Of a stretch of DNA of 64,000 nt, positions 6,543 to 43,483 are shown piece after piece. The notes under the pieces were generated by a model. It ran no database searches and was not told the origin of the DNA. It worked only from the letters and a program-made list of their open reading frames with translations. Origin of the DNA: G963555815 sp965249615 [NCBI: bacterium] (GTDB taxonomy: Bacteria > UBA8248 > JACPRG01). The translations under genes and the position numbers were made by a program. Numbering within the stretch: the first letter of the stretch is position 1; every line of letters starts with the position of its first letter. Where the stretch lies: assembly GCA_965249615.1 (NCBI GenBank), contig CBDFMI010000005.1:372001-436000 (forward strand). Reading direction: 5' to 3'.

Positions 6543-7896
6543 CTAGGTCTCTATCGGTGCTTCAAAGAAGGTCTCGCGGATCTCAATCCCGTGTGCCCGG
6601 AAGCGTTCCAGGAACTTCGGGCGGATGCCCGTCGGGAGGTGCCGGCCCCTGACCGCACCCTCTGGCGTCAACCCCTCCTGCTGGAAGAGGAAGATGTCCT
6701 GCATGGTGACCATTTCCCCCTCCATCCCGGTGAGCTCGCTGATGGCGGTAATCTTGCGGCTCCCGTCGTTCAGACGCGCGATTTGAATCACCACGTCGAT
6801 GGCCGATGTGATCTGCTGGCGAAGGGCTTTGAGGGGCACGTCAAGGCCCGCCATGGCGATCATGACCTCGAGGCGGCTCAGGGCGTCCCGGGGCGTGTTG
6901 GCGTGGACTGTCGAAATGGAGCCGTCGTGGCCCGTGTTCATAGCCTGGAGCATGTCGAGGGTCTCCCCCCCTCTCACCTCTCCCACCACAATCCGGTCCG
7001 GTCGCATACGGAGGCAGTTTCGGACGAGGTCCCGGGTCGTGACGGCCCCCTGCCCCTCCACGTCGGGGGGACGGCTTTCGAGGGTGATCACATGCTCCTG
7101 CTGGAGCTGAAGTTCGGCGGAATCTTCGATGGTGACAATACGTTCTTCGGCCGGGATGAAGCGCGAGAGGACATTGAGGAGAGTCGTCTTCCCGGAGCCT
7201 GTCCCGCCAGAAACGAGAAGATTCAAGCGGGCATTCACGCACCCCCTCAAAAGTTCCACCATGGGTTCCGATAAAGTTCGAAGGGACAGCAAATCCTCCA
7301 CCTCGAGCCTCTTCTTCGGCAAGAGCCGGATGGTCAGAGAAGGACCCTTCAACGCGAGAGGGGGGAATGACCGCATTCACTCGGGAGCCGTCCAACAGGC
7401 GGGCATCCACCATGGGAGAGGATTCGTCGACCCGCCTCCCCACCCGCGAGACGATCCTTTCGATGATCTTCAACAGATGGTCGTTGTCCTTGAAGATCGT
7501 GTCCGTGAGGACGATCTTTCCATGACGGGCGACAAAGACCTGCTTGGCGCCGTTGACCATGATCTCCTCTACGGCCGGATCATTCAGGAGGGGCTCGATG
7601 GGTCCAAGGCCAAAGATCTCATCCAGGATCTCGTCTACAATCTTCCCCTCTTCGCCCCCATTCGCCCCAGGCCTGAGCTCCCGGAGGATCTTCGCCACCT
7701 CCTGGCGGAATTCCCCCTCCAGCTTCTCCCGCTCAACGGAGATAAGCTTCGAGAGGTCCAGGCGTTCGATGAGGATGCGGTGAACCTGCACCTTAAGCTC
7801 AAAGGAGTCCCGCCTCTTTACCTCTGGCGTGGCCTCGGTGGGGACGGACGCAGTCCCTTCACTGCCCGGTTGTTTTAGCCTGTCCCCCAAACGCAT
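6543..7896 (-). CDS. cpaF: Tad pilus ATPase CpaF/TadA, interrupted by a one-base frameshift
   Basis: Secretion ATPase that powers Flp pilus assembly. The N-terminal part reads to [10 protein letters not shown] and then leaves frame; the rest continues from [20 protein letters not shown] one frame over. The change sits at a run of six C (7360-7365 on the plus strand is six G); five would restore one open frame of about 450 residues. The downstream part has Walker [13 protein letters not shown], the Asp box IEDSAEL, Walker [13 protein letters not shown] and the His box [16 protein letters not shown]. The start is ATG at 7896, seven bases after AGGAGG. As written the product is truncated before the ATPase core. 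A homopolymer sequencing error is quite possible. Confidence 0.88.
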
Positions 7897-7926
7897 GGTC
7901 ATTCCTCCTACTTCTTAAACGGAGGT

Positions 7927-9114
7927 CTAGAAGAGGCCGAACTTCCGCTTCCCCTGCCGCTTCGGCGTTTCCCCGTCCGTCAACGTCAGCATTTTTCCAA
8001 GGTCGAGGATCCCTTGGGTTATCTCCGCACGCGGTGCGTACTCCCACAAAGAGAGCCCCCGGTTTGACGCTTTTATGACTTCCCGATAGTCCTCCGGAAG
8101 ACTCATAAACACCGGAAGGTCTAAGGCCTTCTTGATGTCCTCTGTGCCCACATCGTCGTCACGGCCTTTGCGGTTGACGACAACCAGAAGTCTCTTCTCA
8201 TAGCCGAGGCTCCGGAAGACCTCTACGGTGCGCTTGGTGTCCATAATGGCTGAGAGGTAAGGCAGGGTCACCAGCAGGATCGCATCCGCTGAATCGAGGG
8301 CCCGCAGAGTGATGGGGGTGAAATTGTGGGGAACGTCGATGAGGACAAAATCAAAAAGAGTCCGCGCTTTGATCACCCCGTCGATTCCCTCCTCGGACAC
8401 CTTTTCCGCTTGGGCGATCTACTGGGGCCGCGCCAGCACCTGGACCCCTGAGACGTGAGTGAGAAGTGCCTGCTTGATCTCGTCCGGCCCCGCGGGATGT
8501 GCCCCATCGGTCAGGTCAGCGATGGTCAAAGAGGGCGAGAAATTCATGAGAAAGGAGGCGTCATCTCCCATCTCCAGGTCCAGATCAATGAGACCGACCT
8601 TCTTCTCGCGCTCTTTGGCCAGGATGATGCCGAGGTTCACGGCGAGGGTGGTCAACCCGCACCCCCCTTTTGCGCTAAAAAATGTGACCACGCGGCCGGA
8701 GGAACGCTTCACCCCTCCTCGCCCTTGCTCCACTCGAAAGAGGGCCTCCCTCAACTCGCCTTCGTCAAGGGGGAGCTTGACAAAATCTCGGACGCCGCAG
8801 CGTACGGCTCGCAGGAGCCAGTCCCCCCCCGCCTCCTTGGACTTCTCACTGACGCCGAGGAGGGCAGTCCCAGGAGAGAAACGAGTGATCTCCGTTGCGG
8901 CCTCGAGGGCCTTCTCCCAATTTGCGTCCAGATCCAGGAGAGCGGCGGCAGGGCTTTGTTGGGCAACCCAGGTGGAGCACCCCTCCCAGCGTGAAAAGTT
9001 TCCAAGAAAACTCCACTCAGAAAGGGCCTTCAGATGCTTCTCCACCCCTTCGGAGAGCTTTCCCTCCGGATCGATGGCCACAATCGTTAAGGCCGTTTGC
9101 CCCTCTTCCGCCAT
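7927..9114 (-). CDS. cpaE: Tad pilus localisation ATPase CpaE/TadZ, interrupted by an in-frame TAG
   Basis: ParA/MinD-like protein that positions the Tad machine. Residues 1-120 form a receiver-like domain; then FFSAKGGCGLTTLAVNLG is the deviant Walker A and VGLIDLDLEMGDDASFLMNF follows. The frame stops with TAG at 8419-8421 after GVQVLARPQ, and the same frame resumes as IAQAEKVSEEG, then FDFVLIDVPHNFTP (Walker B) and VVVNRKGRDDD. Homologues read through this point, so one sense codon became amber; a single base change would do this. The downstream piece could start at GTG 8400. No length change is involved, so this is not a homopolymer error. Confidence 0.85.
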
Positions 9115-10119: not shown

Positions 10120-11481
10120 CTACATCCCCCGGCCGAGACCGGCACCCCTCCCAAGGGGCAGGGGCTCATCCGGCGGGGCCTCCTCTACCAGCTCTGGCGT
10201 GACAAGGACCAGAAGCTCGGACTCCTCGTTCGTAAATCGCTCGCTCGTGAAGAGCTGACCCAGAATGGGAATATCCGACACAAAGGGGAGCTTTCCGAGG
10301 TTTTTCACCGAGCGGTTGCGGATCAGTCCCGCCATTGCAAAGGTCTCCCCGCTCGTGAGCTCGAGCATGGTCTCAGCGCAGCGCTTGCTCAGGGAGGGGA
10401 CGCTGAATCCTCCCACTGAGACGGCGTTCGCGAAATCAAGCTCGCTCACTTCTGGCGCTAATTTGATCAAAATCCGGCCGTTTTCGAGGACCGTGGGCGT
10501 GAAGTCAAGGCGGACCCCGAAGGGCTTGAAATCGATGGTCACGGCTCCCCCCTCCTGAGGGACGGGGACAGGGAATTCACCTCCCGCGAGGAAACTCGCC
10601 TCTTCGCCGCTCACGGCGACGAGACGGGGCTCGGCCAGGGTCCTGAGGTCACCTCTCGTTTCGAGGGCGCGAATGAGCACGGCGAGGTCCCTCGCCGAAT
10701 TCGCCACGAAGAGATTCACCAGGCTTGAAATGCCGAAATCAGGTCCGAGGGGGGTGTCGTTAGGAGGAACCCGGACGTTCCCAAAAGGAGTCGTGAAGGC
10801 GGACCCGGGGGCGAGGCCGATCTCGGGTAACGACCCCCGGTTGCTGAAGCCGAGGAAGCTAAAGCCCAGTTCTCGAAGCCCGGTCCGCGACACCTCGGCG
10901 AACTGGACCTTGAGGGAAACCTGTTTCGGGGGGGCCTCGACCTTGAGAAGGTTGACGACCTTTTTCGGGGCGAAGGATTCCGCGATCTCACCCACCGTGT
11001 CCCGCACCGTGGCGCGTTTCGTCACCCCGGAGATGACCAGGGTGTCTTTAATCGCCTGGATGGAGATCGTCTCCTCCGGGTAGAGGTCCTTTATCCCCTG
11101 GTCCAGGGTCTCCGCATCGGCCTGAACCACGACGTTGAAGAGGAAGTTCCTTCCGGCTTCGTTCCAGAGGATGAGGTTCGTGACGCCGGAGGCCTTTCCG
11201 CTGAGGAGAAACTGGTCGTTGGAAATCGTAACGACATCGGCCACACCAGGTTCTGCCACGGAGATCCGCTGGATCACGTAGGGGACGCTAATGATGATGG
11301 ATTTGCCGAGCGTCACCCGAAGTCCGGTGACACCACTGCTTACCTCAAAGGGAGAAGCGGGAGAACCTGGCGGGCTGGGGGCCTCTTCCTGCGAGAAGAC
11401 CTGTCCGCTGAGCCCAAAAAACAGGAGAAGGGGCACAAACATAGATATCTTCGCTGCCGCCCGATTCCATCGCCTCATCAT
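10120..11481 (-). CDS. cpaC: Tad pilus outer-membrane secretin CpaC/RcpA
   Basis: 453 residues with a signal peptide ending near SGQVFSQ. The N-domain (about 45-125) includes GKSIIISVPYVIQRISVAEP. A BON-like domain (125-180) ends at FAPKKVVNLLKVE. The secretin core follows, with LAEPRLVAVSGEEASFLAGG, the gate-region motif VRLDFTPTV, and the closing GKLPFVSDIPILGQLF before ELLVLVTPELVE. It forms the outer-membrane channel for the Flp pilus. It overlaps the chimeric gene upstream by four bases. Frame intact. Confidence 0.93.
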   Translation of the reverse strand: MMRRWNRAAAKISMFVPLLLFFGLSGQVFSQEEAPSPPGSPASPFEVSSGVTGLRVTLGKSIIISVPYVIQRISVAEPGVADVVTISNDQFLLSGKASGVTNLILWNEAGRNFLFNVVVQADAETLDQGIKDLYPEETISIQAIKDTLVISGVTKRATVRDTVGEIAESFAPKKVVNLLKVEAPPKQVSLKVQFAEVSRTGLRELGFSFLGFSNRGSLPEIGLAPGSAFTTPFGNVRVPPNDTPLGPDFGISSLVNLFVANSARDLAVLIRALETRGDLRTLAEPRLVAVSGEEASFLAGGEFPVPVPQEGGAVTIDFKPFGVRLDFTPTVLENGRILIKLAPEVSELDFANAVSVGGFSVPSLSKRCAETMLELTSGETFAMAGLIRNRSVKNLGKLPFVSDIPILGQLFTSERFTNEESELLVLVTPELVEEAPPDEPLPLGRGAGLGRGM

Positions 11482-12542
11482 TCCCCTCCCCCTACGGTCT
11501 TCCTGAGTGACTCGAGCACTGTTTCGATAGTCCGCTCTGATCCCCGAATGACTTCGACCTCCAGAGGCGGCGGCTTTGGAGCCGCCTTAGCCCGCGGCGC
11601 GGCCGGCTGAGTCCTCCCCCGGACCAGCCGAGAGGCAGTGATCCCGCGGGTTCTGGTGTTTGTCTCGTCCTGGTCATTGCGAAGCGCGAGACGGATGGTC
11701 CCTTTGGTCGACGCAAGCGTCAAGCCTTCGGCCTCTTCCGGGCTGACCAGCAGCGTTACAATGGAGACCTTTTTCTCTCCGCTGTCGCTCTTTCCCGTTC
11801 TCTCTCCAACGGTCAGGACCGTGACGTTTTGGAGGATCGTCTTGCTCACGATCCTGGACGGGCCGTCGCGTTGAGGGACCTCCATAGTGGTGAGGACATC
11901 CACACGGCTCCCATGAGAGAGAAACCCAGCCACCCCGATGACCTCATCCATCTGGACCGTGACCGCCCGCATCCCCTCCGGGATGCGAGGGGCTAGACCT
12001 GGGGCCGAGACAAGGTTGACCACCTTTTTCGGAGCGAAGGATTCGGCGATGCGTCCCACGGTCTCCCGGACGTCAGCTCTGTCCGTCACCCCGGAGATCA
12101 CCAGGTTGTCCCTGATGGCTTGAACGGAGAGTTTCTCCTCGGGGTAAAGCTCCTTCAGACCCTGGGCCAGGGCGGCTGCGTCGGCCTGAACCAAGATGTT
12201 GTAGACAAATCTCTGGTCCCCCTCATCCCAGAGGATCAGGTTCGTGGCCCCCGGTGCTTTCCCGCTCAGGAGAAATTGCTGACGAGAGATCGTGGCGACG
12301 TCAGCCACGCCCGGATCCGCCACAGACATCCGTCCAATGATATAGGGGACAGAAAGGAGGAGGGATTTCCCGACCGTAATGGTGAAGTCCGTGGAGACGG
12401 AACTCGCCTCGAAGGGAGCGGTTGGGCGCAGTGGCCGCTCAGCTTCCTCTTGCGCTGACGCTTCCCAACCCAATCCAAACAGGAAAATGAGTCCAAAAAT
12501 CCAACAAAGAATTCGTCTTTCCGGTCCCCTTAGCTTTGCCAT
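11478..12542 (-). CDS. Chimeric protein: CpaC N-terminal domains fused to CpaB C-terminal domain
   Basis: 354 residues. Residues 1-30 are a signal peptide. Residues 48-177 match CpaC (next gene) almost position for position: GKSLLLSVPYIIGRMSVADP, ISRQQFLLSGKAPGATNLIL, FAPKKVVNL. From about residue 181 (PGLAPRI) it instead matches CpaB (previous gene): GVAGFLSHGSRVDVLTT, KKVSIVTLLVSPEEAE, ITASRLVRG. There is no secretin channel domain and no SAF/membrane anchor, so it is probably a soluble periplasmic protein combining a secretin periplasmic ring domain with the CpaB C-terminal domain. It could act as an adaptor between CpaB and the secretin. The frame is intact in a locus where five others are broken. 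Confidence 0.85.
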   Translation of the reverse strand: MAKLRGPERRILCWIFGLIFLFGLGWEASAQEEAERPLRPTAPFEASSVSTDFTITVGKSLLLSVPYIIGRMSVADPGVADVATISRQQFLLSGKAPGATNLILWDEGDQRFVYNILVQADAAALAQGLKELYPEEKLSVQAIRDNLVISGVTDRADVRETVGRIAESFAPKKVVNLVSAPGLAPRIPEGMRAVTVQMDEVIGVAGFLSHGSRVDVLTTMEVPQRDGPSRIVSKTILQNVTVLTVGERTGKSDSGEKKVSIVTLLVSPEEAEGLTLASTKGTIRLALRNDQDETNTRTRGITASRLVRGRTQPAAPRAKAAPKPPPLEVEVIRGSERTIETVLESLRKTVGGGE

Positions 12543-12568: not shown

Positions 12569-13351
12569 TCACTTCGGCGTCGCCTCACGGGACCTCTCTA
12601 CCCCACGGATGACCTCTATCCCCTCGCCCGGGGCTGTGCCGGGGGCCCCTCCGTAGATCAGTTGAGGAGCCGTGATGCCGGGCGTGTTGGAAGACGTTTC
12701 ATCGCGGTTATTTCGGAGCGTCAGGAAGGTGGTCCCTTTCGTCGCGGCCAGGGAGAGACGCTCGGCCTGGGAGGGGGTTACAAGGAGGGTCACGACCGAA
12801 ACCTTTTTCGCCTTTGAGTCTCTGCTCTCCAACCTCTGACCCACGGCGAGGACCTCGACGTTTTGAAGGACCAGCTTGCTGATGGTCCCCCTCCCCCCCC
12901 GGTCGTCTATATCTGACGTCGCCAGGACATCGACCCGGCTCATGGGCAGGAGAAACCCCGCGACACCAATGACTTCGTTTACCCGGATCGTCATCGCCCG
13001 CATCCCTGGGTCAATGCGGGAGGCCAACCCGGGGGAAGACCCCTCGGGCGCCAATTTACCGAGGAGGACGGGTTCCCCCTTTATCAAGTCTGACATGGCC
13101 CCCCGACCCTCCACCTCCTGGACCTTGCCGGCCGCCGCCGCCGGCCTCAAAGGGGCGGGCCAGGAGGCGAGCTCCACGTCCTCTTTTTTAAGAATTTCGC
13201 CCTGGGCCACATTTGTTTTCATCAGAACGACGGGTTCCAGCTTGGGTTCGGCTGGGCCGCCGCCCGCAGAGAAAAGGCGGGCTGCCACCAGGGTCACTAT
13301 CAGGCCGATCACACCCGAAAGGAGGATGAGCATCGCTCGCTTTCGATTCAT
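12569..13351 (-). CDS. cpaB: Flp pilus assembly protein CpaB/RcpC
   Basis: 260 residues. An N-terminal membrane anchor (about 5-28) is followed by a SAF domain (about 40-100: VVLMKTNVAQGEILKKEDVE, then LIKGEPVLLGKL) and the RcpC/CpaB C-terminal domain with NEVIGVAGFLLPMSRVDVLA and KKVSVVTLLVTPSQAERLSL. CpaB is a periplasmic partner of the secretin in Tad systems. The last residues (EVIRGVER) resemble the end of the chimeric protein (EVIRGSER). It precedes the chimera by 26 bases. Frame intact. Confidence 0.9.
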   Translation of the reverse strand: MNRKRAMLILLSGVIGLIVTLVAARLFSAGGGPAEPKLEPVVLMKTNVAQGEILKKEDVELASWPAPLRPAAAAGKVQEVEGRGAMSDLIKGEPVLLGKLAPEGSSPGLASRIDPGMRAMTIRVNEVIGVAGFLLPMSRVDVLATSDIDDRGGRGTISKLVLQNVEVLAVGQRLESRDSKAKKVSVVTLLVTPSQAERLSLAATKGTTFLTLRNNRDETSSNTPGITAPQLIYGGAPGTAPGEGIEVIRGVERSREATPK

Positions 13352-13383
13352 CTCGGTTCCCTCGAGAGTCTAGACATGCCTTC

Positions 13384-13861
13384 TCACTCGTGACGCATCA
13401 CGGTCGTCTGGCTCAAGGTGATCACGCCCCCCCAGCCGGGGATGAAGGAACCCGTCAGGGATTGGAAAGGATAGGAGACGACCACCGAGGTCGAGTCCCC
13501 TGAAACGGCACCGTCAACACCAGTCGTCGTGATCGTGGCCAGCTGGTCCATCCCCGCAGTCTGCAAGTAGTTGTTCACGACCGTGGTCACCTGTCCAGAA
13601 CTCACTCCCGCGAGGACGCCTATCCTGCGCCCCTTCGCGCGAGGAATTGGTCACGACCTGAAGCGTCCAGAAGGCCCTGCCAAAATCTGTGACGGCCAAG
13701 AGGAGAATAAGCAAGACAGGCAGAACAAGGGCAAATTCGACGAGCGCCTGTCCGCCCCGCCCCTTAGGCCACCAAAACCGCCCACGCCGTGCCGATGGCG
13801 ATGGCGACTCCGTAGGGTATTGTCCCCCATCTGCCCCAACGTTGTGGCCGTTGAGCCCCAT
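13384..13861 (-). CDS. tadE: Pseudopilin TadE, interrupted by a one-base frameshift
   Basis: The N-terminal part carries the TadE signature: GRGGQALVEFALVLPVLLIL, then FGRAFWTLQVVTNSSREGA. It then leaves frame. The other frame continues as RIGVLAGVSSGQVTTVVNNY and runs to a stop at 13384. Dropping one base in GGGGCGCAGG (about 13627-13633) joins the two into a normal TadE of 130-160 residues. The start is uncertain: ATG at 13861 lies inside the 3' end of cpaA, an overlap of about 98 bases. TadE is a prepilin-peptidase-processed minor pseudopilin needed for Flp pilus formation. Confidence 0.75.
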
Positions 13862-14263
13862 CTCCCTTTTCAGGCCCCCTTGAGTGGGGTTTCCCATCGG
13901 CTGTCCTCGCACCCCTTCTTAGGAGAAGGAACAATATGGCCATGAGCCCGCCTGTAATGGCTGAGGCGAGGGCCACTTGGACCCCTTCCCAGGGCCCCAG
14001 GAGGGCGCCAAGGGCGACGACCAGCTTCAGATCGCCGGCCCCCAGGCCTCCTAAGAGATAGGGGATCAGAAAGAAAACCGCCGTAAGGACGGCCCCTCCC
14101 AGCGCAAAGAGGAGACCGGTCCACCCAGACCAGGCGAAATGCCATCCAAAGCCGAGGAGCAAGCCCGGGAGGGTCAACCAGTTTGGAATAATCCCCTTGC
14201 GGAGGTCCCAAACCCGGCTATCCCAACCATCAGGAGGGCTGGAATCCACTCCCCCCCTGACAT
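13764..14263 (-). CDS. cpaA: Prepilin peptidase CpaA/TadV, frameshifted in the first membrane segment
   Basis: Type IV prepilin peptidase, A24 family, which trims Flp, TadE and TadG. From ATG 14263 the frame reads MSGGEWIPALLMVGIAGF, a good first membrane segment. The conserved continuation WDLRKGIIPNWLTLPGLLLG lies in the neighbouring frame. One missing T in TTT (AAA at 14210-14212 on the plus strand) explains the shift. The second catalytic motif GGLGAGDLKL is present, and the protein ends with IPYGVAIAIGTAWAVLVA. A GTG at 14249 opens the downstream frame but lacks the first membrane helix. About 165 residues when repaired. Confidence 0.82.
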
Positions 14264-14777: not shown

Positions 14778-15611
14778 TTAGGAAACAACCAGCAAAAGCT
14801 CCCGCACTGCTTTTGCCGCCACGGTGGCCGAAACCCCTGAAGGGTCAAGACCAGGGGCCAACTCAACAACATCTGCCCCAATCACCTGACACCCTCTCAG
14901 AGCGTGAAGGCTCTCCTCCAACGCCCCAAAGCTCCATCCCCCCGGCTCAGGCGTCCCGGTTCCCGGGAGAACCCCCGGGTCCAAAACATCCAGGTCCAGG
15001 GTCAAATAGAGAGGATGATTTTGAAAGATATTGTTGCAAATGCCGTGCCGTTGCAGAACCTGGATCTGGCTGGAGCGGCGGGCCAGGTCCATTTCCTCCC
15101 GGGTCCCGGAGCGGACCCCGCACTGATAAACCATTAAATCCTTAGAGAGCCCCAGGACGCGCTTGATCACCGTCGCGTGTGACAAGCGCTGGCCCTGGTA
15201 CTCCTCCCGAAGGTCCGCGTGGGCGTCCAGTTGGAGGAGGCGCAGATGGGGGTGGACTGAGATGGCTGCCTCCAGGAGCGGCAGCGTGATTAGGTGCTCT
15301 CCCCCAAGCGCCAGGACTCGCCGACCCGAGGAGAAGAGCTGGTGCGCCCTTTGCCGGATGACAGAGAGCGAGCTGTCCAGGTCTCCGCGACGAAAGGTCA
15401 GATCGCCAAGGTCCCCGAAGGAGACTTCCTCCAGATCCCGATTTAGGGCCGGGCTGAAGCTTTCAAGGCCCTCTGAGGCCTCCCGGATGGCCGGAGGACC
15501 CAGTCGAGCCCCTTGGCGAAAGGTGACCGTTTCCTCCAGGGGACACCCAAGGAGAAGGGTCTTCGTCTCCCCTGTTCGCTTTGAGGCCAGGAAGCGAATT
15601 TCCTCTTCCAA
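14778..15611 (-). CDS. speB: Agmatinase / aminopropylagmatine ureohydrolase
   Basis: 277 residues, ureohydrolase (arginase) family. The two-manganese ligand motifs are all visible: GGEHLIT near residue 100, QLDAHADLR near 125, RLSHATV near 140, and LDLDVLDPGVLPGTGTPEPG near 200; VELAPGLD follows. It hydrolyses a guanidino group to urea. It is last in the order speD-pdaD-speE-speB. The substrate may be agmatine (giving putrescine) or, as in Thermus, N1-aminopropylagmatine (giving spermidine directly). Sequence alone does not decide which. Confidence 0.87.
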   Translation of the reverse strand: MEEEIRFLASKRTGETKTLLLGCPLEETVTFRQGARLGPPAIREASEGLESFSPALNRDLEEVSFGDLGDLTFRRGDLDSSLSVIRQRAHQLFSSGRRVLALGGEHLITLPLLEAAISVHPHLRLLQLDAHADLREEYQGQRLSHATVIKRVLGLSKDLMVYQCGVRSGTREEMDLARRSSQIQVLQRHGICNNIFQNHPLYLTLDLDVLDPGVLPGTGTPEPGGWSFGALEESLHALRGCQVIGADVVELAPGLDPSGVSATVAAKAVRELLLVVS

Positions 15612-15637
15612 AGGGAAACTCCTTCGGGGAAAACCTC

Positions 15638-16573
15638 TTAGGCCCCCAGCCCCTCCCGCACAAAATTAGGGAGCACGAAGGCACTTTGATGAATCTCGGG
15701 GTTGTAGTAGCGAGTTTGAATCCCGGAGCCCCTCGCCCGCTCTTGCGAAAAGTCCCGAAGGGGGTCCCAGCGTTTAGAGGCCAGGGTGAAGCTCCAAAGG
15801 GCGAGCGGATAGGTGGGGACAGTGGCCAAGTAGACATGGGCGATAGGGAAGATGGCCCCCAATTTCTGATAGATGGACTTCACCAGGTCCAGCTGGGCCA
15901 TCGCCGACTCGCTCTGGACCACCAGGATCCCGTCATCGCGGAGCAGATTGAAAACGTCCTGGTAGAAGGAGGTCGCAAAGAGGCCGACTCCGGGTCCGTA
16001 GGGATCGCTCGAATCGATGAGGATAACGTCATAGGACGCCCCTTTGCCATTCACGAATTCAATCCCGTCTTGAATGGTGATCTCGACAGTGGAAGCGTCA
16101 AGGTCCCGGCTTAACGTCGGGAGGTGCTCTCGAGAGGCCTGAAGGACCATCTCGTCAATCTCGACCAGGTGGATGTGCTTCAAGGAGCTGTGCTTTCTGG
16201 CCTCCCGGACGCTTCCCCCATCCCCGCCGCCGATAATCAGGATGTCTTGAGGTTGGGGGTGAGTGAAAAGAGGGACGTGGACCAGCATTTCGTGATAGAT
16301 GAACTCGTCCATCTCCGTGGCCATCACGACCCCGTCCAGCGTGAGCATCCTGCCGAAAGGGACCGTCTCAAAGACATCGACCCGCTGATAGGGGCTTTCC
16401 CCGCTGAACAAGGTCTTTTCGATTCGAACCGTGATCCCGTGGTGCTCGCCGTGAATCTCGTTAAACCAAAGTTCCAGTCGGTAAGATCGCTTCAGCTGTT
16501 CTCTTCTCTTGGGATTCAATTCAGAGAGATCCTTCTGAAAACTAGCAGAGATGGCGGCGTTTTGGTTCTGCAA
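15638..16573 (-). CDS. speE: Spermidine (aminopropyl) synthase
   Basis: 311 residues. It transfers the aminopropyl group from decarboxylated S-adenosylmethionine to an amine. Seen: the N-terminal beta region with GESPYQRVDVFE and GRMLTLDGVVMATEMDEFIY, then the Rossmann glycine loop IIGGGDGGSVREA near residue 115, VEIDEMVL, and DVILIDSSDPYGPGVGLF, which holds the catalytic Asp region. Gene order places it between pdaD and speB. The acceptor may be putrescine or agmatine. Confidence 0.9.
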   Translation of the reverse strand: MQNQNAAISASFQKDLSELNPKRREQLKRSYRLELWFNEIHGEHHGITVRIEKTLFSGESPYQRVDVFETVPFGRMLTLDGVVMATEMDEFIYHEMLVHVPLFTHPQPQDILIIGGGDGGSVREARKHSSLKHIHLVEIDEMVLQASREHLPTLSRDLDASTVEITIQDGIEFVNGKGASYDVILIDSSDPYGPGVGLFATSFYQDVFNLLRDDGILVVQSESAMAQLDLVKSIYQKLGAIFPIAHVYLATVPTYPLALWSFTLASKRWDPLRDFSQERARGSGIQTRYYNPEIHQSAFVLPNFVREGLGA

Positions 16574-16585
16574 CGAGAGGGGCTT

Positions 16586-17053
16586 TCAGCTCCAGAGCAC
16601 CACCGTCGCGACCGCCACCCCGAGACTGGCCACCCGGTGTTCAATGGCTCGGCTAACGATCCTTTGGACAGGTTCTCCCCGCATCTCCATCCCCTCCTTG
16701 GCCATCTGGATCACCTTTTCCTCGGTCGCCTTCCGGCCAGACTGGTCGGCGTGCTCCATAATGAGACCCGGCTTGGTCTCGTCCTTCGGGAACGCGATGG
16801 CGATTCCTGCCGATATGATCCCGCCCGGCTGATCTCCCGCAATCCAAGCATAGGCCACAGGGACAAAAGCTCCAAAGGGAAGTGAGACCGGGGCGATCTC
16901 TCGACAGGCCGGGGGGATGATGCTGCTTGCCTTGATCAAGTTGGTATTGCCGATGCCGGCCTGAAGGAGAGCGCCGTCGAAGGCGTTCAACTCCGTCGAT
17001 CCTTCTGAGGCGCCGCAAGCCAGGAAGTAGGTCTTCGGGGTAGGAAAGATCAT
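16586..17053 (-). CDS. pdaD: Pyruvoyl-dependent arginine decarboxylase
   Basis: 155 residues. It makes agmatine from arginine using a pyruvoyl group produced by self-cleavage. Seen: GNTNLIKASSIIPP near residue 40, where cleavage falls at the Ser-Ser pair; VPVAYAWIAGDQPGGIISAG; and the conserved acid segment IMEHADQSGRKATEEKVIQM. This matches the archaeal/bacterial PvlArgDC family, unrelated to PLP enzymes. It lies 12 bases upstream of speE and 85 downstream of speD. No strong ribosome-binding site is seen before its ATG. Confidence 0.9.
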   Translation of the reverse strand: MIFPTPKTYFLACGASEGSTELNAFDGALLQAGIGNTNLIKASSIIPPACREIAPVSLPFGAFVPVAYAWIAGDQPGGIISAGIAIAFPKDETKPGLIMEHADQSGRKATEEKVIQMAKEGMEMRGEPVQRIVSRAIEHRVASLGVAVATVVLWS

Positions 17054-17138
17054 GAAGAACTGGAACGGGGAAAGCCGATGTCGCGAACCGTCAGGACCGC
17101 TCGGCGTCGCTTTTGGGCGGCCTGCAGGGAGGCCTGCA

Positions 17139-17537
17139 TCAGCGTGCGCTCAAGGCGTCGGGTTTGTAACTCAGGGTTTTTCCCTCGGCCTCGAGCGTCC
17201 CGCGGGGGATCTCCTGTACCTTCTGGGAACGGGCCCGAAAGCTTTCGCCGAGATAAGTGACCGCCTGTTCAGGGTCCAGCCCCTCGCCGCAAGAAAAAAG
17301 GTCGACGGCGGCGAAGGCGTACTCCGGCCAAGTGTGGATCGCCATGTGGGATTCGGCGATCACGACGACACCGCTAATGCCATGAGGATTGAAAAGATGG
17401 AAAATGCTGTCGACGATGGTAGCGCCTGTTCGGTGGGCTGCCTCCGTCATGGCCTCCTCGATTCGGGCCACGTCGTTGAGGATTCCAACATCACACTCGT
17501 AGTACTCGATCAGAAGGTGACGGCCCAGCGCCTTCAA
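17139..17537 (-). CDS. speD: S-adenosylmethionine decarboxylase proenzyme
   Basis: 132 residues from TTG at 17537, which has GGGGAGGA seven bases upstream; a frame open to 17648 exists, but its extra residues look non-coding. It makes the aminopropyl donor for SpeE. It is the short prokaryotic (SpeH-type) form. [20 protein letters not shown] holds the cleavage site Glu-Ser and the downstream His; [12 protein letters not shown] holds the conserved Cys. It is the first gene of the polyamine operon. Confidence 0.92.
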
Positions 17538-17724
17538 CGGTCCATCCTCCCCCCGTGGGCCGCGGCGGCCCCGATGCCCTAGATATCCGCCTGTCTCACC
17601 CCCCCGCCCCCTCTGGAAATACCGGGGACAGGCAACCCATAAAAACATAGCCGGGAACTTCCCAGCTTCTTGATGTTGCGGGCCCGGTTCGCCCGATAAA
17701 GCCCTCGCAACTGTCTGAAGGCTT

Positions 17725-17816: not shown

Positions 17817-18687
17817 TCAACCTTCGTCGCGCCCCGACACCCCCGCCGCCTCCATCGCCTCGCGAAAACGGTCCGGGAGCCGGACCCATCCACTCAGGGG
17901 CTCCTGGAGCCCTGAGAAAACAGGCTGAAGCTCGATCAGACGCTGCTCCGCGCTCGGATGGGTCCGAAAAAGGGACCGCCCCTCATCTGGGCCCCGGCCC
18001 GCCCGGAGTGTCTCCAATATGGAGAGAAACCCTTCCGGGTCATAACCCACGTGCGCGGCGAGCTCCATCCCCTTTCGGTCAGCGTCAAACTCCTTCTGCC
18101 TGTCGAGGCCCTCGTCGAAGAGTTTTTTCATGGCGGTGTTAATGATCGCGTCAAAACGGTCCGGGTCGCCGCCGAGGGTGGCCAGAGTTACCTGGGAGAG
18201 ACCCGAGAGGGCCTTGCTCCTCTGGATCACCTGGAGGATGTGCTTCTCTGTGATGTGTGCGATCTCATGGGCCAGAACCCCGGCCAGTTCCGCTTCGCTC
18301 GTGACCTTTCGGGGGAGCCCGCGCGTCGAAGGCGTTCACCGCCTCGCTCTTCAGGACCGCGAAGTTGTACTCCAGCCCGGGGCGTTCAGACCGGTTCGAA
18401 AGGGCCCTCCCGAGAAGTCCCAGATAGCGCATGAGCACAGGGTCTTCGTCTATCCCCCCAAATTGAACCACCACCTGTGTGGCGATGGTCCCCCCGATGG
18501 CCCGTTCCTCCTCGATCCCAATCGGAAGAAGCCCCCCCACCACGGACCCCGCCCCCCGCACGACCGCCTCTCTTCGCTCCGGGTCGTCCAGGGTCTCCCG
18601 GGCGACCTGCTTCAGCTCGGCGCAGCCGGCGAGGAAAAGGACAAGAAGCCCGACAGTGCGAAGGACCGTCCTTTTTCTCCTCATCAT
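17817..18687 (-). pseudogene. M48-family zinc metallopeptidase lipoprotein, frameshifted by an internal deletion
   Basis: The N-terminal part has a lipobox (LFLAGC) and the BepA/M48 region up to LKSEAVNAFDA. It then leaves frame. The other frame resumes as LPRKVTSEAELAG, followed by VLAHEIAHITEKHILQVIQ with the HExxH zinc motif, and the third ligand region EFDADRKGMELAAHVGYDPE. Between NAFDA and EAELAG only about 10 residues remain where this family usually has about 18 (PGGY and a strand). The lesion near 18316-18326 therefore looks like a deletion of about 23-25 bases rather than a single-base error. Last gene of the cyclase-SH3-peptidase set. Confidence 0.72.
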
Positions 18688-38994: not shown

Positions 38995-40743
38995 GTGAAA
39001 GTGGTTTCTCAAAAAAAGGTGGCGATGGGGACAGAAAGCCTGACCGGTGCCGAGATCCTAGTGCGGTGTCTGTCGGCTGAGGGCGTCAAGCACGTCTTCG
39101 GTTACCCAGGGGGGCCCCTTCTCCCTATCTACGACCTCGTCGCGGACTCCACGATCCAGCACATCCTCACCCGCCACGAGCAGGGGGCCATCTACGCGGC
39201 CGAGGGGTACGCCCGGGCGACAGGGCGGGTGGGAGTGTGTATGACGACCTCAGGCCCTGGGGCCACCAACCTCGTGACGGGGATCACCGATGCTTTTATG
39301 GATTCGGTCCCGCTGATGGCCTTCACTGGTCAGGTCCCCACCTCCATGATTGGCAACGACGCCTTCCAGGAGGCCGACATCGTGGGGATTACCCGAACGG
39401 TCACCAAAAATAACTACCTGGTCCGAGATGTCTCGGAGTTGGCCCGCACCGTGAAGGAGGCCTTCTACATCGCTTCCACAGGCCGACCCGGGCCGGTCCT
39501 GGTCGACATGCCAAAGGATATCCTCCCCTCTCGGACTCAGTTCGAGTACCCCAAGGAGGTGCGCCTCAAAGGCTATCAGCCCACCCTCAAGGGCCATCCT
39601 CGCCAGATCAAGCGGGTGGCCGATGCCATCCAAGAGGCCAAGCGACCCGTCCTCTATGTCGGGGGAGGGGCCATTATCTCGGGGGCGGCTGAGGAGCTGA
39701 AGAAGCTTGCCAAGAAGACACAGATCCCGGTCACGGCAACCCTCATGGGCCTGGGCGCCTTCCCGGGGGACGACCCCCTCTTCCTGGGCATGCTGGGGAT
39801 GCATGGGACCGCCTATGCCAATTACGCGGTTTCCGAATCCGACCTTCTCATCGCCGTTGGGGCTAGGTTTGACGACCGGGTGACCGGACGAGTAGACGGG
39901 TTCGCCCCTCAGGCCAAGGTCGTCCACATTGACATCGACCCAACTTCCATCCAGAAGAATGTGCCCGTCGATATCCCCGTGGTGGGCGACGCCAAGGGAA
40001 TTCTGAGGGAGCTGAACAAGCTCGTCTCGCCGGGCAAACGAAAAAGCTGGCTTCAGCAGATCGAGCGCTGGAAAAAGGAATATCCTCTGCGCTACCGGCA
40101 GCGGCCCGGTGAGATTATGCCCCAGGAGATGATCAAGGTCCTTCGGGAGCTCTGTCCCGATGACGCCATCATCACAACCGACGTGGGGCAGCATCAGATG
40201 TGGGCCGCTCAGTATTTTCGAGTCAAAAAGCCCAGGACCTTCATCACTTCCGGAGGGCTCGGCACGATGGGTTTTGGATTTCCAGCAGCCCTGGGGGCCC
40301 AGCTGGCCCAGCCCAAGACCCGCGTGATCTCCCTTGTCGGAGACGGGGGCTTTCAAATGGTGGCCCACGAGCTGGCGACGGCCGTCCAGTACAAGCTCCC
40401 TATCAAAGTCCTCATTATGAACAACCGATTCCTGGGGATGGTGCGCCAGTGGCAGCACCTCTTTCGGGACCGGCGCTACCATTTCACCGACCTGAGCGTG
40501 AACCCTGACTTTGTCAAGCTGGCCGAATGCTACGGAGCGACGGGGGTGGCCATCACCGATCCAGACCGCCTGCGCCCGGACCTCAAGCGCGCTCTCTCGC
40601 TTCCGGGCCCCGTCGTCATCGACTGCCACGTGAGCCGCGAGGAAAATGTCTATCCGATGGTCCCGCCCGGCGGCGCCATCCGGGACATGATCTTCGAAGA
40701 CGACCAAAAGGGCCGAAAGGGGCGGCCTCGAGCGAGCCGCTGA
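38995..40743 (+). CDS. ilvB: Acetolactate synthase large subunit, copy 1
   Basis: 582 residues, full length for AHAS. It condenses pyruvate with pyruvate or 2-oxobutyrate for valine, leucine and isoleucine. [35 protein letters not shown] (the TPP-activating Glu is in RHEQG), and [20 protein letters not shown]. The TPP/Mg motif runs from [18 protein letters not shown] to [13 protein letters not shown]. The FAD region is present. A second, diverged copy follows after 33 bases, and two small subunits after that. Confidence 0.93.
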
Positions 40744-40776
40744 TGACCGCCCAGTAACCCTGAAGGAGATTGGACC

Positions 40777-42453
40777 ATGGAGAAGACCGGGTCCGAGATC
40801 ATCATTGAGGAACTGAAACGCCAGGGGGTGGACCTCATCTTCGGCATGCCGGGGGGGGCCATCATGCCCCTCTACGACACCCTCTATGAAAGCGGTATCC
40901 GACACATCCTCATCCGCCACGAACAGGCGGCAGCCATGGCCGCCGACGGATACGCCCGCTCCACAGGGCGAGTTGGGGTGTGTTTCACCACCTCTGGCCC
41001 CGGGGCCACGAACCTGGTGACGGGGCTCGCCAACGCCCAGATGGACTCGGTCCCTATGGTGGTCGTCACGGGACAGGTGGCCACCTACATGATCGGGAGC
41101 GACGCCTTCCAGGAGGCCGACATCTACGGGATTAGCCTCCCGTGTACGAAATACAACTATCTGGTGAAGGACGTGCAAAACCTTCCCCAGATCGTTCGGG
41201 AGGCTTTCCACATCGCCCGTACAGGCCGCCCCGGCCCGGTCCTCATCGACCTGCCCAAGGACATCCAGATCGCCACGATGGACTACGACCCCGGGATGGA
41301 AACCGACTTGACCACGGTCACCCGCGAGCCCTCGCCCGAGGTGGACCTAGAAGTCATCGCCCGCATGGCCGACGCCATTCACGGGGCGAGCCGGCCCGTC
41401 ATCTACGCGGGAGGGGGGGTCGTCCACTCGGGCTGCTACGATCTCCTCAAGCAGTTCGTGGAGCTCACCAAAATCCCCATCACGACGACCGTCATGGGTC
41501 TCGGTATCTTCCCGATGCGCCATCCCCTCTGCCTTGGGATGCCCGGCATGCACGGGAGCCACGCCGTGAACTATGCCATCTCAGAGAGCGATTGCTTGAT
41601 CGCCCTCGGGGTCCGCTTCGATGACCGGGTGACGGGGGATCTCAACAAATTTGCGCCCAAGGCCACGGTCCTCCACGTGGATATCGATGCGGCGGAGATC
41701 GGAAAGCGGGTCCGCCCCCACCTCTCCATCCACGCCAACGTGGCTGACGCCCTGAAGGAGCTCGTGAAGACGGTCGAGCCCGGGGACTGTGCCGCCTGGC
41801 GTGAGGAGATCGCTGAAAGCAACCGGAAGTTTCCCATGGGCTATCATTCGGACGGCAGTCTCAAACCCCAATACCTCCTCGAGCAACTCGCAGAGGTGAC
41901 CGGCGGGAACGCCATCATGACCACGGGGGTCGGCCAGCACCAGATGTGGGCGGCTCAGTTCTATCCCTTTGAGAAGCCCCGTCATTGGCTCACCTCCGGG
42001 GGGCTTGGCGCAATGGGCTATGGCCTTCCGGCCGCCATCGGGGCCCAGCTCGCCCACCCCGACAAGCTGGTCATCAACCTGGACGGAGACGGGAGCTTTC
42101 AGATCAACCTCCAAGAGCTGGCCACCATCGACCAATACGGGATCCCCGTCAAGACCATCATCCTCAACAACCAGTACCTCGGGATGGTCCGCCAGTGGCA
42201 GGAGTACTTCTTCGAGCGCCGCTACTCGGAGACCCATTACACCCGAAACCCCGACTTTGCGAAGGTGGCCGAGGGGTTCGGGGTGAGAGGAATGCAGCTG
42301 AAGAAGGTGGAGGACGTCCGCCCGGTTCTAGAAGAGGCGCTGTCTTATGACGGCCCTGTGGTGCTTGACGTCTTCATTGCCCAGGAGGAGAACGTCCTCC
42401 CCTTGGTCCCCGCGGGCAAGAGCCTGGCGGAGATGATCGACTTCATTGAATAG
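40777..42453 (+). CDS. ilvB: Acetolactate synthase large subunit, copy 2
   Basis: 558 residues with all AHAS motifs: [60 protein letters not shown], and a TPP motif from LDGDGSFQINLQELATID to [20 protein letters not shown]. It is clearly paralogous to copy 1 but diverged throughout, so the duplication is old. Having two catalytic and two regulatory genes in tandem suggests isozymes with different feedback or substrate preference (inference). GAAGGAG lies before the ATG. Confidence 0.93.
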   Translation: MEKTGSEIIIEELKRQGVDLIFGMPGGAIMPLYDTLYESGIRHILIRHEQAAAMAADGYARSTGRVGVCFTTSGPGATNLVTGLANAQMDSVPMVVVTGQVATYMIGSDAFQEADIYGISLPCTKYNYLVKDVQNLPQIVREAFHIARTGRPGPVLIDLPKDIQIATMDYDPGMETDLTTVTREPSPEVDLEVIARMADAIHGASRPVIYAGGGVVHSGCYDLLKQFVELTKIPITTTVMGLGIFPMRHPLCLGMPGMHGSHAVNYAISESDCLIALGVRFDDRVTGDLNKFAPKATVLHVDIDAAEIGKRVRPHLSIHANVADALKELVKTVEPGDCAAWREEIAESNRKFPMGYHSDGSLKPQYLLEQLAEVTGGNAIMTTGVGQHQMWAAQFYPFEKPRHWLTSGGLGAMGYGLPAAIGAQLAHPDKLVINLDGDGSFQINLQELATIDQYGIPVKTIILNNQYLGMVRQWQEYFFERRYSETHYTRNPDFAKVAEGFGVRGMQLKKVEDVRPVLEEALSYDGPVVLDVFIAQEENVLPLVPAGKSLAEMIDFIE

Positions 42454-42464
42454 GTGACCGAAGC

Positions 42465-42971
42465 GTGAGGCGCATACTTTCCATCATGGTTCGAAACCAC
42501 CCGGGGGTCCTCTCCCATGTGGCAGGACTGTTTACGCGCCGGGCCTTCAACATCGAGAGCGTCGCCGCCGGGCCGACAGAAAATCCCAACGTCACCCGTA
42601 TCCACATCGTGGCCTTGGGAGATGATCGGCAGATCGACCAGGTCATCAAGCAGATCCAAAAGCTCATCGATGTCCTGGAAGTCTCCGTCCTCACATACGC
42701 CGGCTCGGTCACACGGGAGCTCGTCCTGGTGACGATATCTTCCTCTCAAGACAACCGCCAGGAGATCCTCCAGCTGGCCGAGGTCCTCGGGGCTAAGGTG
42801 GTAGATCTCACGGCCCGGGCCATTACCTTGGAGTTCAGCGGCAATGAGCGCCAGGTTAACAGCGCCCTTCGCATGGTCGAGCGATTTGGCGTCAAACGAA
42901 TGGCTCGCACAGGGATGGTCGCCCTCCCCTTCGAAAGCATCTTAGAAGAAGCCCGGGAGCCCATGAGCTGA
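42465..42971 (+). CDS. ilvN: Acetolactate synthase small (regulatory) subunit, copy 1
   Basis: 168 residues. N-terminal ACT domain (RILSIMVRNHPGVLSHVAGL, then FNIESVAAGPTENPNVTRIH) for valine sensing, followed by the ALS small-subunit C-terminal domain (EILQLAEVLGAKVVDLTARA). It activates and confers feedback control on IlvB. Start GTG at 42465, 11 bases after ilvB copy 2. Confidence 0.92.
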   Translation: MRRILSIMVRNHPGVLSHVAGLFTRRAFNIESVAAGPTENPNVTRIHIVALGDDRQIDQVIKQIQKLIDVLEVSVLTYAGSVTRELVLVTISSSQDNRQEILQLAEVLGAKVVDLTARAITLEFSGNERQVNSALRMVERFGVKRMARTGMVALPFESILEEAREPMS

Positions 42972-42976
42972 GGCCT

Positions 42977-43483
42977 ATGGGCGACGAGGCGAGACGTCAT
43001 ACCATCGCAGTTCTAGTGGAAAATAAATTCGGTGTCCTGGCCCGGGTCGCTGGGCTTTTCAGCAGCCGGGGCTTCAACATCGAGAGCCTCTCGGTCGGCG
43101 AGACCCAGGATCCCCAGCTCTCGCGGATGACGATTGTCACCACGGGCGATGAGGCCATCATTGAGCAGATCATCAAGCAGCTCCATCGCCTCATCGATGT
43201 GATCAAGGTGATCGATCTCGCGGAGACCTCCTTTGTGGAACGCGAGATGCTCCTCATCAAGGTCAACGCTGAACCGTCCGTTCGGGCAGAAGTCCTGCGC
43301 CTCTCGGACATTTTCCGTGCTAAGGTGGTGGACGTCTCCCCCAAGACATACACCTTGGAGGTGACCGGGGATCAAGGGAAGATCCGGGCCATGCTCGACC
43401 TCCTGCATCCTCACGGCATCAAGGAGATCGCCCGCTCGGGCAAGGTCGCCCTCGCTCGGGGGACTCAGGCCATGAAAGCATAA
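42977..43483 (+). CDS. ilvN: Acetolactate synthase small (regulatory) subunit, copy 2
   Basis: 168 residues, same two-domain layout as copy 1: ACT domain HTIAVLVENKFGVLARVAGL and FNIESLSVGETQDPQLSRMT, then EVLRLSDIFRAKVVDVSPKT. It is diverged from copy 1, so it may regulate the other large subunit or respond to a different amino acid. It follows copy 1 by five bases. The usual next gene, ilvC, is not here; psd follows after two bases. Confidence 0.92.
   Translation: MGDEARRHTIAVLVENKFGVLARVAGLFSSRGFNIESLSVGETQDPQLSRMTIVTTGDEAIIEQIIKQLHRLIDVIKVIDLAETSFVEREMLLIKVNAEPSVRAEVLRLSDIFRAKVVDVSPKTYTLEVTGDQGKIRAMLDLLHPHGIKEIARSGKVALARGTQAMKA

What the first reader, a model, noticed from the sequence alone, without database searches (positions are those of the whole stretch)
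11478..12542. CpaC::CpaB chimeric gene sitting between cpaB and cpaC, as a tandem duplication would leave it
Residues 48-177 are a CpaC paralogue (N-domain plus BON, ending FAPKKVVNL) and residues 181 onward a CpaB paralogue (PGLAPRI in the chimera, PGLASRI in CpaB). If the block [CpaB C-half + CpaC N-half] is duplicated in tandem, the result is intact cpaB, then a CpaC-N::CpaB-C chimera, then intact cpaC: the order seen. The junction near 12005 is in frame, a signal peptide is kept, and both halves have diverged from their parents while staying open. The product would be a soluble periplasmic protein joining a secretin ring domain to the CpaB C-terminal domain, a possible adaptor. I do not know of a described protein with this layout.
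Basis: partly seen in the sequence, partly recalled or inferred. Interest (0 to 1): 0.8.

Follow-up and report, generated by a model that had tools for sequence, protein, structure and literature searches.

The report
Pilus bridge protein from fused neighbours
Between two neighbouring pilus-machine genes of an unidentified bacterium lies a third gene stitched together from halves of both, probably encoding a coupling piece that joins the inner and outer parts of the machine; some Nitrospirota bacteria have, apparently independently, made a smaller gene of the same design.

Summary
The chimera is real. Window 12542..11478 (-) encodes 354 aa: leader, CpaC-type N-domain (PF13629), BON-like segment, then CpaB's RcpC domain and C-terminal tail, without CpaB's SAF domain or CpaC's secretin barrel. 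It lies between intact cpaB and cpaC. In trees each half is sister to its own neighbour (100/99; 96/85) and Ka/Ks is about 0.25 and 0.22. A CpaC::CpaB chimera of local origin is supported; tandem duplication fits but is not proven.

It is not alone. Of 39 Nitrospirota tad loci read (partly chosen for it, so not a frequency), 20 have a shorter gene beside cpaC, 19 of them demonstrably between cpaB and cpaC: CpaC-N + BON-like + only CpaB's tail motif. One shared origin with the window chimera is rejected (p-AU 2e-7).

Published work offers a mechanism: in P. aeruginosa the RcpC/CpaB C-terminal hairpin is modelled as completing the sheet of the RcpA/CpaC N-domain, and Caulobacter CpaI is modelled as a bridge using both contacts. 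The chimera carries both interface halves plus a D2 ring domain, so I read it as a CpaI-like bridge, possibly an extra storey. The mechanism is inferred; structure prediction and a tail-specificity test gave no support.

The parts
12569..13351 (-). cpaB (rcpC), intact, 260 aa: N-terminal hydrophobic stretch (by eye), SAF and RcpC domains, C-terminal tail with IEVIRG
   Evidence: Pfam; NCBIfam TIGR03177 208.3 bits
11478..12542 (-). the chimeric gene, 354 aa, CpaC-N::CpaB-C
12453..12542 (-). signal peptide of the chimera, residues 1-30 (..WEASA|QEE), judged by eye; no lipobox seen at its end
   Evidence: sequence itself; no signal-peptide program was run
12189..12389 (-). N-domain (PF13629, residues 52-118), the predicted acceptor of a CpaB tail
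12009..12173 (-). BON-like segment (residues 124-178), below the Pfam cut-off
11997..12011 (-). junction between CpaC-derived and CpaB-derived parts (residues 178-182)
11679..11999 (-). RcpC domain (PF16976, residues 182-288), equivalent to D2 of P. aeruginosa RcpC
11511..11558 (-). CpaB-type C-terminal tail (residues 329-344, starting VEVIRG), which aligns to the C-terminal end of the RcpC chain 9gzr; predicted donor hairpin
   Evidence: motif by eye in the window protein
10120..11481 (-). cpaC (rcpA), intact secretin, 453 aa
4617..10046 (-). downstream tad genes: Tad/TadG-like, tadZ-like (in-frame stop), tadA (frameshift), two T2SSF genes (tadB, tadC)
   Evidence: gene names by order and Pfam match
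13370..14249 (-). upstream tad genes: TadE-like (frameshift) and prepilin peptidase (Peptidase_A24)

Best explanation
The gene is a paralogue-derived chimera of the adjacent cpaC (5' part: N-domain, BON-like segment and probably the leader) and cpaB (3' part: RcpC/D2 domain, linker, C-terminal tail), most simply born by a tandem duplication spanning the cpaB-cpaC boundary, and kept under purifying selection. Its product is a soluble periplasmic protein that probably works as a bridge between the inner-membrane CpaB ring and the outer-membrane CpaC secretin: its N-domain receives the C-terminal hairpin of CpaB, its own CpaB-type tail is given to the N-domain of CpaC, and its D2 domain could add a second ring to the periplasmic conduit. 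Shown here: architecture, ancestry of both halves, presence of both halves of the modelled interface, low Ka/Ks, and an independent smaller counterpart in Nitrospirota. Inferred: export, both contacts, the extra ring and the tandem-duplication route.
For: Ancestry: trees. Constraint: Ka 0.263/Ks 1.04 for the N-half and Ka 0.355/Ks 1.61 for the RcpC half. Interface: the RcpC C-terminal hairpin is modelled by AlphaFold-Multimer as completing the RcpA N-domain sheet, and its truncation abolishes Tad-dependent biofilm and aggregation (PMC12307814); the chimera carries that N-domain and a tail that aligns to the end of the RcpC chain 9gzr (GVTVYRGSAMTHEAPLE) and scores 19.4 bits with an HMM of CpaB tails, against at most 8.7 for shuffled decoys. 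Precedent: Caulobacter CpaI is modelled with the CpaB hairpin on its N-terminal sandwich and its own C-terminal sheet on the CpaC N-domain, and loss of cpaI is reported, in a preprint cited there, to leave secretins without the alignment subcomplex (PMC13170226 passages); a CpaI-like S. meliloti protein is PF13629. Convergence: 20 of 20 Nitrospirota middle genes beside cpaC have the CpaB-type tail motif after the CpaC-type N-half (13, 7 more); 3 of 3 similar proteins away from tad loci lack it.
Against: No structure supports the docking: AlphaFold2 with a 3-row alignment gave pLDDT 42.7 and is uninformative. A prediction of the bridge model, that middle-protein tails resemble the tails of CpaB in loci without a middle gene more than the co-resident CpaB tails do, failed (8 of 18 loci). 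In the P. aeruginosa pull-down, RcpC without its hairpin still bound the RcpA N-domain, so the tail alone does not make the contact. The tail HMM finds neither the S. meliloti CpaI-like nor its CpaB tail above shuffles, so CpaI is an analogue, not a shown relative of the tail, and the tail profile is not universal; 15 of 73 CpaB-type ORFs lack the motif. Only one gene with this full layout was found. Three other tad genes in the window carry broken frames, so the machine may not be made as read.
Confidence: 0.5

Rival explanations
1. Mixed-ring subunit: the chimera does not form a separate storey but enters the CpaB D2 ring (through its RcpC domain) or the CpaC N-domain layer (through its N-domain) as a minor subunit, for instance to help with the 12:13 symmetry mismatch between ring and secretin.
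For: D2 domains form a C12 ring in RcpC and a 13:12 RcpA:RcpC ratio is proposed (PMC12307814); the chimera RcpC domain is still 57% identical to that of window CpaB.
Against: It lacks D1, which makes interfaces 1 and 2 of the RcpC dodecamer, and by eye the membrane anchor. The five Nitrospirota counterparts scanned have no RcpC match at all, so a D2 role is not what the two have in common.
Confidence: 0.2
2. Regulator or plug: carrying both donor and acceptor, the protein folds its own tail onto its N-domain or caps one partner, and so keeps CpaB and CpaC apart until assembly.
For: Donor and acceptor lie on one chain; an RcpC hairpin 'lid' before secretin docking has been speculated (PMC12307814 Discussion).
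Against: CpaI, the closest described design, is reported as needed for the connection rather than blocking it.
Confidence: 0.12
3. Neutral by-product of a duplication, not yet lost.
For: Three other tad genes here carry frameshifts or a stop, so the locus may be decaying.
Against: Both halves have diverged far (Ks about 1 or more) while staying open with Ka/Ks about 0.25 and 0.22. The divergence is shared with the parents' own branches, so the ratio does not measure the chimera alone.
Confidence: 0.12
4. Assembly join of two separate copies.
For: The window has broken frames in at least four genes, so the sequence may not be error-free; no reads were available.
Against: The junction is in frame, spacing to both neighbours is operon-like (26-base gap, 4-base overlap), and the alignable stretches of both halves differ from the flanking cpaB and cpaC at about a quarter or more of their DNA positions, so they are not mis-joined flanks.
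Confidence: 0.06

Closest known systems
CpaI of Caulobacter crescentus (and CpaI-like proteins of Sinorhizobium)
   Same: Small periplasmic protein with the CpaC/RcpA N-domain fold, encoded with tad genes, modelled to link CpaB to CpaC through a donor-strand-like tail. The S. meliloti protein that I take as CpaI-like by its family and place (L200 5407-5823) is PF13629.
   Different: That S. meliloti protein has 138 aa, no BON or RcpC match, lies upstream of the pilin gene and not between cpaB and cpaC, and its tail is not recognised as CpaB-type. CpaI is described in print as CpaC-related (PMC10934763 passage); I saw no description as a CpaC::CpaB chimera. Caulobacter CpaI itself was not examined.
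Nitrospirota middle genes, 203-246 aa in complete copies as longest ORFs (found here, e.g. L102 8776-9447)
   Same: Beside cpaC and, where both neighbours are on the contig, between cpaB and cpaC; CpaC-type N-half followed by a CpaB-type tail; PF13629 in 5 of 5 scanned.
   Different: No RcpC/D2 match in the 5 scanned; N-domains mostly form their own clade; one origin together with the window chimera rejected, p-AU 2.35e-7.
CpaB / RcpC (TIGR03177; PDB 9gzr)
   Same: RcpC domain and C-terminal tail; NCBIfam would name the chimera CpaB (144.7 bits, cut-off 71).
   Different: No SAF/D1, by eye no membrane helix other than the leader; CpaC-type N-domain instead.
CpaC / RcpA secretin (PDB 8odn, 8jvb)
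   Same: N-domain and BON-like segment, probably leader.
   Different: No secretin barrel.

Membership tests
CpaB/RcpC alignment protein | RcpC (D2) domain PF16976 | tested here: met
   1.1e-29, residues 182-288
CpaB/RcpC alignment protein | SAF/D1 domain | tested here: not met
   No SAF match in the chimera; present in window CpaB
CpaB/RcpC alignment protein | N-terminal inner-membrane helix as anchor | tested here: inconclusive
   By eye the N-terminus is a cleavable leader like that of CpaC; no topology program run
CpaC/RcpA secretin | Secretin barrel PF00263 | tested here: not met
   Absent in the chimera, 9.4e-41 in window CpaC
CpaC/RcpA secretin | N-domain PF13629 | tested here: met
   2.8e-17; sister to window CpaC
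CpaI-type bridge | Exported protein with CpaC-like N-domain and no barrel | tested here: met
   leader judged by eye
CpaI-type bridge | Tail that pairs with the CpaC N-domain | tested here: inconclusive
   A CpaB-type tail is present; docking not shown
CpaI-type bridge | N-domain receives the CpaB hairpin | not testable with these tools
   No multimer prediction available
CpaI-type bridge | Descent from CpaI | tested here: inconclusive
   The chimera N-half is sister to window CpaC at 100/99, which speaks against it; CpaI itself was not in that tree
Nitrospirota middle gene | Shared origin of the N-domain | tested here: not met
   p-AU 2.35e-7 against one clade, a group named after the tree was seen; gene conversion could mimic this

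The most novel reading that the evidence does not exclude
Tad machines without CpaI gain a trans-envelope bridge again and again by the same accident: a tandem duplication across the cpaB-cpaC boundary, which leaves a CpaC-N::CpaB-C protein between intact parents, and that protein carries by construction the acceptor and the donor of the CpaB-CpaC contact. Where the cut falls decides the product: cut late in cpaB and it is a small linker (Nitrospirota), cut before D2 and it is a linker with its own ring, an extra storey of the pilus conduit (this window).
Probability: 0.3. Interest if true: 0.78.

Novelty: new variant of a known kind. Interest (0 to 1): 0.62.

Why it matters
How Tad machines that lack CpaI connect their inner- and outer-membrane parts is open; the Caulobacter tomography paper says that many species lack a clear CpaI orthologue and that linking mechanisms are diverse, with direct RcpA-RcpC contact as one (PMC13170226). 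The window chimera and the Nitrospirota middle genes are ready candidates, found by sequence alone, and they carry both halves of the modelled CpaB-CpaC interface on one chain. They also suggest a simple route by which a nanomachine gains a new part: duplicating the boundary of two interacting neighbours makes a two-faced linker in one step. NCBIfam would label the window protein plain CpaB, so other cases may be hidden under that name.

Tried and rejected
Plasmids: 112 records match, none with one place over 80% of the query. Viral contigs with an RcpC profile: 58 pattern stretches, no relative.

Other full-length chimeras: I looked for rows that start in the N-domain and end in the RcpC part. 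None of the listed rows proved to be one in Nitrospirota (198 genomes; class of G153, 146; order of G153, 196, E<=1e-17; these three overlap), Myxococcota (188, list cut off), Pseudomonadota (398, E<=1e-18), Omnitrophota (145, E<=1e-14), the phylum of a Bdellovibrionales genome (45, E<=1e-14), Elusimicrobiota (198, E<=1e-14), Planctomycetota (246, E<=1e-16). Phylum names are taken from record titles of the centre genomes. Many rows do reach back to residues 96-153, over the BON-like part. I checked eight such loci (L068, L078, L081, L082, L130, L131, L185, L197): their RcpC-bearing ORFs match the chimera N-half only weakly (E 0.013 or worse), and the four ORFs scanned, from the genomes of L078, L081, L082 and L130, have SAF and no PF13629, so these are ordinary CpaB. 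Further such rows, among others, were not opened. The E-value limits are safe only on the assumption that a true chimera scores on both halves. These are samples, and the window's own phylum may not be among them.

Structure: AlphaFold2 on the chimera with two window rows, pLDDT 42.7, not used; no fold search was made on it. Tail-swap prediction of the bridge model: not met, 8 of 18. Tail HMM on the S. meliloti CpaI-like protein and CpaB: nothing above shuffles. The rival that the Nitrospirota tail is just the CpaC sequence after BON: z -0.1 to 2.4 in 11 loci, against 2.9 to 6.6 for the co-resident CpaB tail. An ancestral middle gene shared with Nitrospirota: rejected unless gene conversion occurred. 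A control (unrelated stretch of cpaC) aligned only 12 codons and says nothing.

Papers: PMC12307814 read in Results and Discussion; PMC13170226, PMC10934763 and PMC10499894 seen as passages; the preprint by Maggi et al. only as cited in PMC13170226. No paper describing a PF13629+RcpC fusion showed itself in the titles and abstract openings listed; four of these lists were cut (15 of 28, 12 of 21, 12 of 15, 15 of 24), and only open-licence PMC papers are searched.
Full report
The observation. On the minus strand the window holds a tad locus in the order prepilin peptidase, TadE-like gene, cpaB, the finding, cpaC, a Tad/TadG-like gene, a tadZ-like gene, tadA and two T2SSF genes. The ORF 12542..11478 encodes 354 aa. 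Residues 18-181 match window CpaC at 63% (E 1e-65) and residues 179-340 match window CpaB at 55% (E 4e-47). Pfam finds T2SS-T3SS_pil_N at 52-118 and RcpC at 182-288; BON is only sub-threshold, in the chimera and in CpaC alike; SAF and Secretin are absent. The gap to cpaB is 26 bases and the stop overlaps the cpaC start by 4 bases.

Ancestry. I aligned 78 N-domains (window, Nitrospirota, Myxococcota, Pseudomonadota, Omnitrophota, plasmids) and 74 RcpC domains (these groups and four from the Bdellovibrionales phylum). The chimera N-half is sister to window CpaC with support 100/99 and 65% identity; the RcpC half is sister to window CpaB with 96/85 and 57% identity. Both trees have few columns (137 and 132), and the program warns of long branches elsewhere in them. 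Ka/Ks by Nei-Gojobori is 0.263/1.04 for the N-half and 0.355/1.61 for the RcpC half; the proportions of synonymous differences (0.56 and 0.66, about 103-105 sites each) are, by my estimate of sampling error, not clearly different. So both halves come from the neighbours in the same lineage, could be of one age, and show fewer amino-acid than silent changes per site. The ratio includes the parents' own branches. A tandem duplication spanning the cpaB-cpaC boundary leaves just this order; two-step routes are not excluded.

Not alone. Searching Nitrospirota with the chimera showed a third short gene next to cpaC in some genomes. I read 39 Nitrospirota tad loci: 20 have the middle gene and 19 do not. 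This is no frequency, since seven were fetched because the search rows already showed the middle gene. In 19 of the 20 it lies between cpaB (one of them cut by the contig end, L104) and cpaC; in the other (L162) the contig ends before cpaB. The complete copies have 203-246 aa as longest ORFs: a hydrophobic start, a CpaC-type N-half and a short tail such as TVEVIKGTSVNAVKF. Of five scanned, all have PF13629, none RcpC, and the BON-like segment passes the Pfam cut-off in one. The tail is CpaB-like, not CpaC-like. The pattern [VIL]x[VIL][IFYVL][RKQA]G occurs in the last 75 residues of 58 of 73 CpaB-type ORFs from several phyla, in the last 40 residues of 13 of 13 middle proteins beside cpaC, and in the last 40 residues of 0 of 70 CpaC-type ORFs, some of which are fragments or cut by locus ends. 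The 7 middle genes fetched afterwards also have it, 20 of 20 in all. Three proteins with the same N-domain and BON-like segment encoded away from tad loci lack it, 3 of 3 (L167, L169; L219 by eye). An HMM of 28 CpaB tails scores the window chimera at 19.4 bits, window CpaB at 13.4 and the 11 middle proteins tested at 11.4-19.2; the best shuffled decoy reached 5.0 in one set and 8.7 in another. In 11 loci the middle tail matches the co-resident CpaB tail with z 2.9-6.6 and the CpaC sequence after BON with z -0.1 to 2.4. So the Nitrospirota middle gene is itself best read as a CpaC-N::CpaB-tail chimera, cut much later in cpaB.

Two births. In the N-domain tree 12 of the 13 Nitrospirota middle proteins form a clade (100/99) next to Nitrospirota CpaC. 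Forcing all 13 together with the window chimera costs 85.6 log-likelihood units (p-AU 2.35e-7; I chose the group after seeing the tree), while the 13 alone can be one clade (p 0.64). The two tail-less proteins L167 and L169 fall next to the window pair, with weak support (84/78) and a long-branch warning. Unless gene conversion has homogenised the window pair, the middle gene arose at least twice. That position and polarity (downstream N-part, upstream C-part, intact parents on both sides) are what a tandem duplication across the boundary of two adjacent genes gives, so the recurrence needs no special targeting; what needs explaining is that it was kept.

Mechanism. P. aeruginosa RcpC (CpaB) is a membrane-anchored protein with D1, D2, a linker and a C-terminal hairpin. 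It forms a dodecamer with a pore of about 5 nm; AlphaFold-Multimer places the hairpin so that it completes the beta-sheet of the RcpA (CpaC) N-domain, and truncation of the hairpin abolishes Tad-dependent biofilm and aggregation, although in pull-downs the linker mattered more than the hairpin (PMC12307814). The chimera aligns to that RcpC chain (9gzr, 5.6e-11) through D2 and on to the C-terminal segment GVTVYRGSAMTHEAPLE against its own EVEVIRGSERTIETVLE; that this segment is the paper's hairpin I infer from its place near the chain end. In Caulobacter a separate small protein, CpaI, with the RcpA N-domain fold, is modelled with the CpaB hairpin on its N-terminal sandwich and its own C-terminal sheet on the CpaC N-domain; tomography shows density there, and a cited preprint reports secretins without the alignment complex when cpaI is deleted (PMC13170226 passages). 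The window chimera and the Nitrospirota middle proteins carry the same two faces, but built from the genes' own interface: CpaC's acceptor and CpaB's donor. The simplest reading is a head-to-tail bridge, CpaB tail to middle N-domain and middle tail to CpaC N-domain, with D2 in the window protein offering a second ring. Steps shown: domains, tails, ancestry, low Ka/Ks, recurrence. Steps inferred: export, both contacts, ring formation.

Against it. The AlphaFold2 model from three window rows has pLDDT 42.7 and says nothing. If middle tails had taken over binding of the CpaC N-domain, they should resemble the tails of CpaB in loci without a middle gene more than the co-resident CpaB tails do; they do so in 8 of 18 loci only (L157, L162 left out as near-copy and contig end; 11 of the 19 loci without a middle gene used as reference), and mean scores are about equal (10.75 and 10.62). 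In the same call middle and co-resident CpaB tails are less like each other after the motif (5.56) than either is like those outside tails; this could mean divided specificity, but the loci are related and I give it little weight. The tail HMM finds neither the S. meliloti CpaI-like protein nor its CpaB above shuffles, so CpaI is an analogue with the same N-domain family, not a shown relative of the tail, and the profile does not cover all CpaB. Only one full CpaC-N::D2::tail protein was found, and tadA, the TadE-like and tadZ-like genes and an M48-type peptidase gene in this window carry frameshifts or a stop, which may be sequence errors or decay.

What it is called. NCBIfam would name the chimera CpaB, since it passes the TIGR03177 cut-off, although SAF is absent. 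It fails membership in CpaB (no SAF) and in the secretins (no barrel). It works, if the reading is right, like CpaI, but its closeness to window CpaC argues against descent from CpaI, which was not itself in the tree. I therefore rate it a new variant of a known kind, with the repeated birth of such bridges as the more novel reading.

Noticed in passing
window 6543-7902, 7927-9114, 13370-13912, 17817-18687: Broken frames: frameshift in tadA, in-frame stop in the tadZ-like gene, frameshift in the TadE-like gene, frameshift in an M48-type peptidase gene outside the tad locus (named by eye). Either sequence errors or decay.
   Followed up: partly
window 38995-43483: Two adjacent ORFs resembling acetolactate synthase large subunits (52% identical to each other) followed by two resembling small subunits (41%), i.e. 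a doubled ilvB-ilvN set in one run (names by eye).
   Followed up: partly
L167 6066-6641, L169 5979-6554, L219 1944-2522: In three Nitrospirota genomes a 191-192 aa CpaC-N + BON-like protein is encoded away from the tad locus and ends right after the BON-like segment, without the CpaB-type tail; function unknown.
   Followed up: partly
window 14778-17648: Genes that look like agmatinase, spermidine synthase (Pfam), pyruvoyl-type arginine decarboxylase and AdoMet decarboxylase lie in one run next to the tad locus; the best long match of the spermidine synthase in genome contigs is 49% identical. Names other than spermidine synthase are by eye.
   Followed up: no
L199 8875-10152: On a Leisingera plasmid a protein of about 425 aa annotated with the pilus assembly N-terminal domain sits close to a gene annotated FlhA, with no gene annotated as tad in the 18 kb shown.
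   Followed up: no
Myxococcota genomes, e.g. G329:C50:58069-60271: Search rows suggest two cpaB-like genes in a row before cpaC, so whole-gene duplication of cpaB at this spot may also occur.
   Followed up: no
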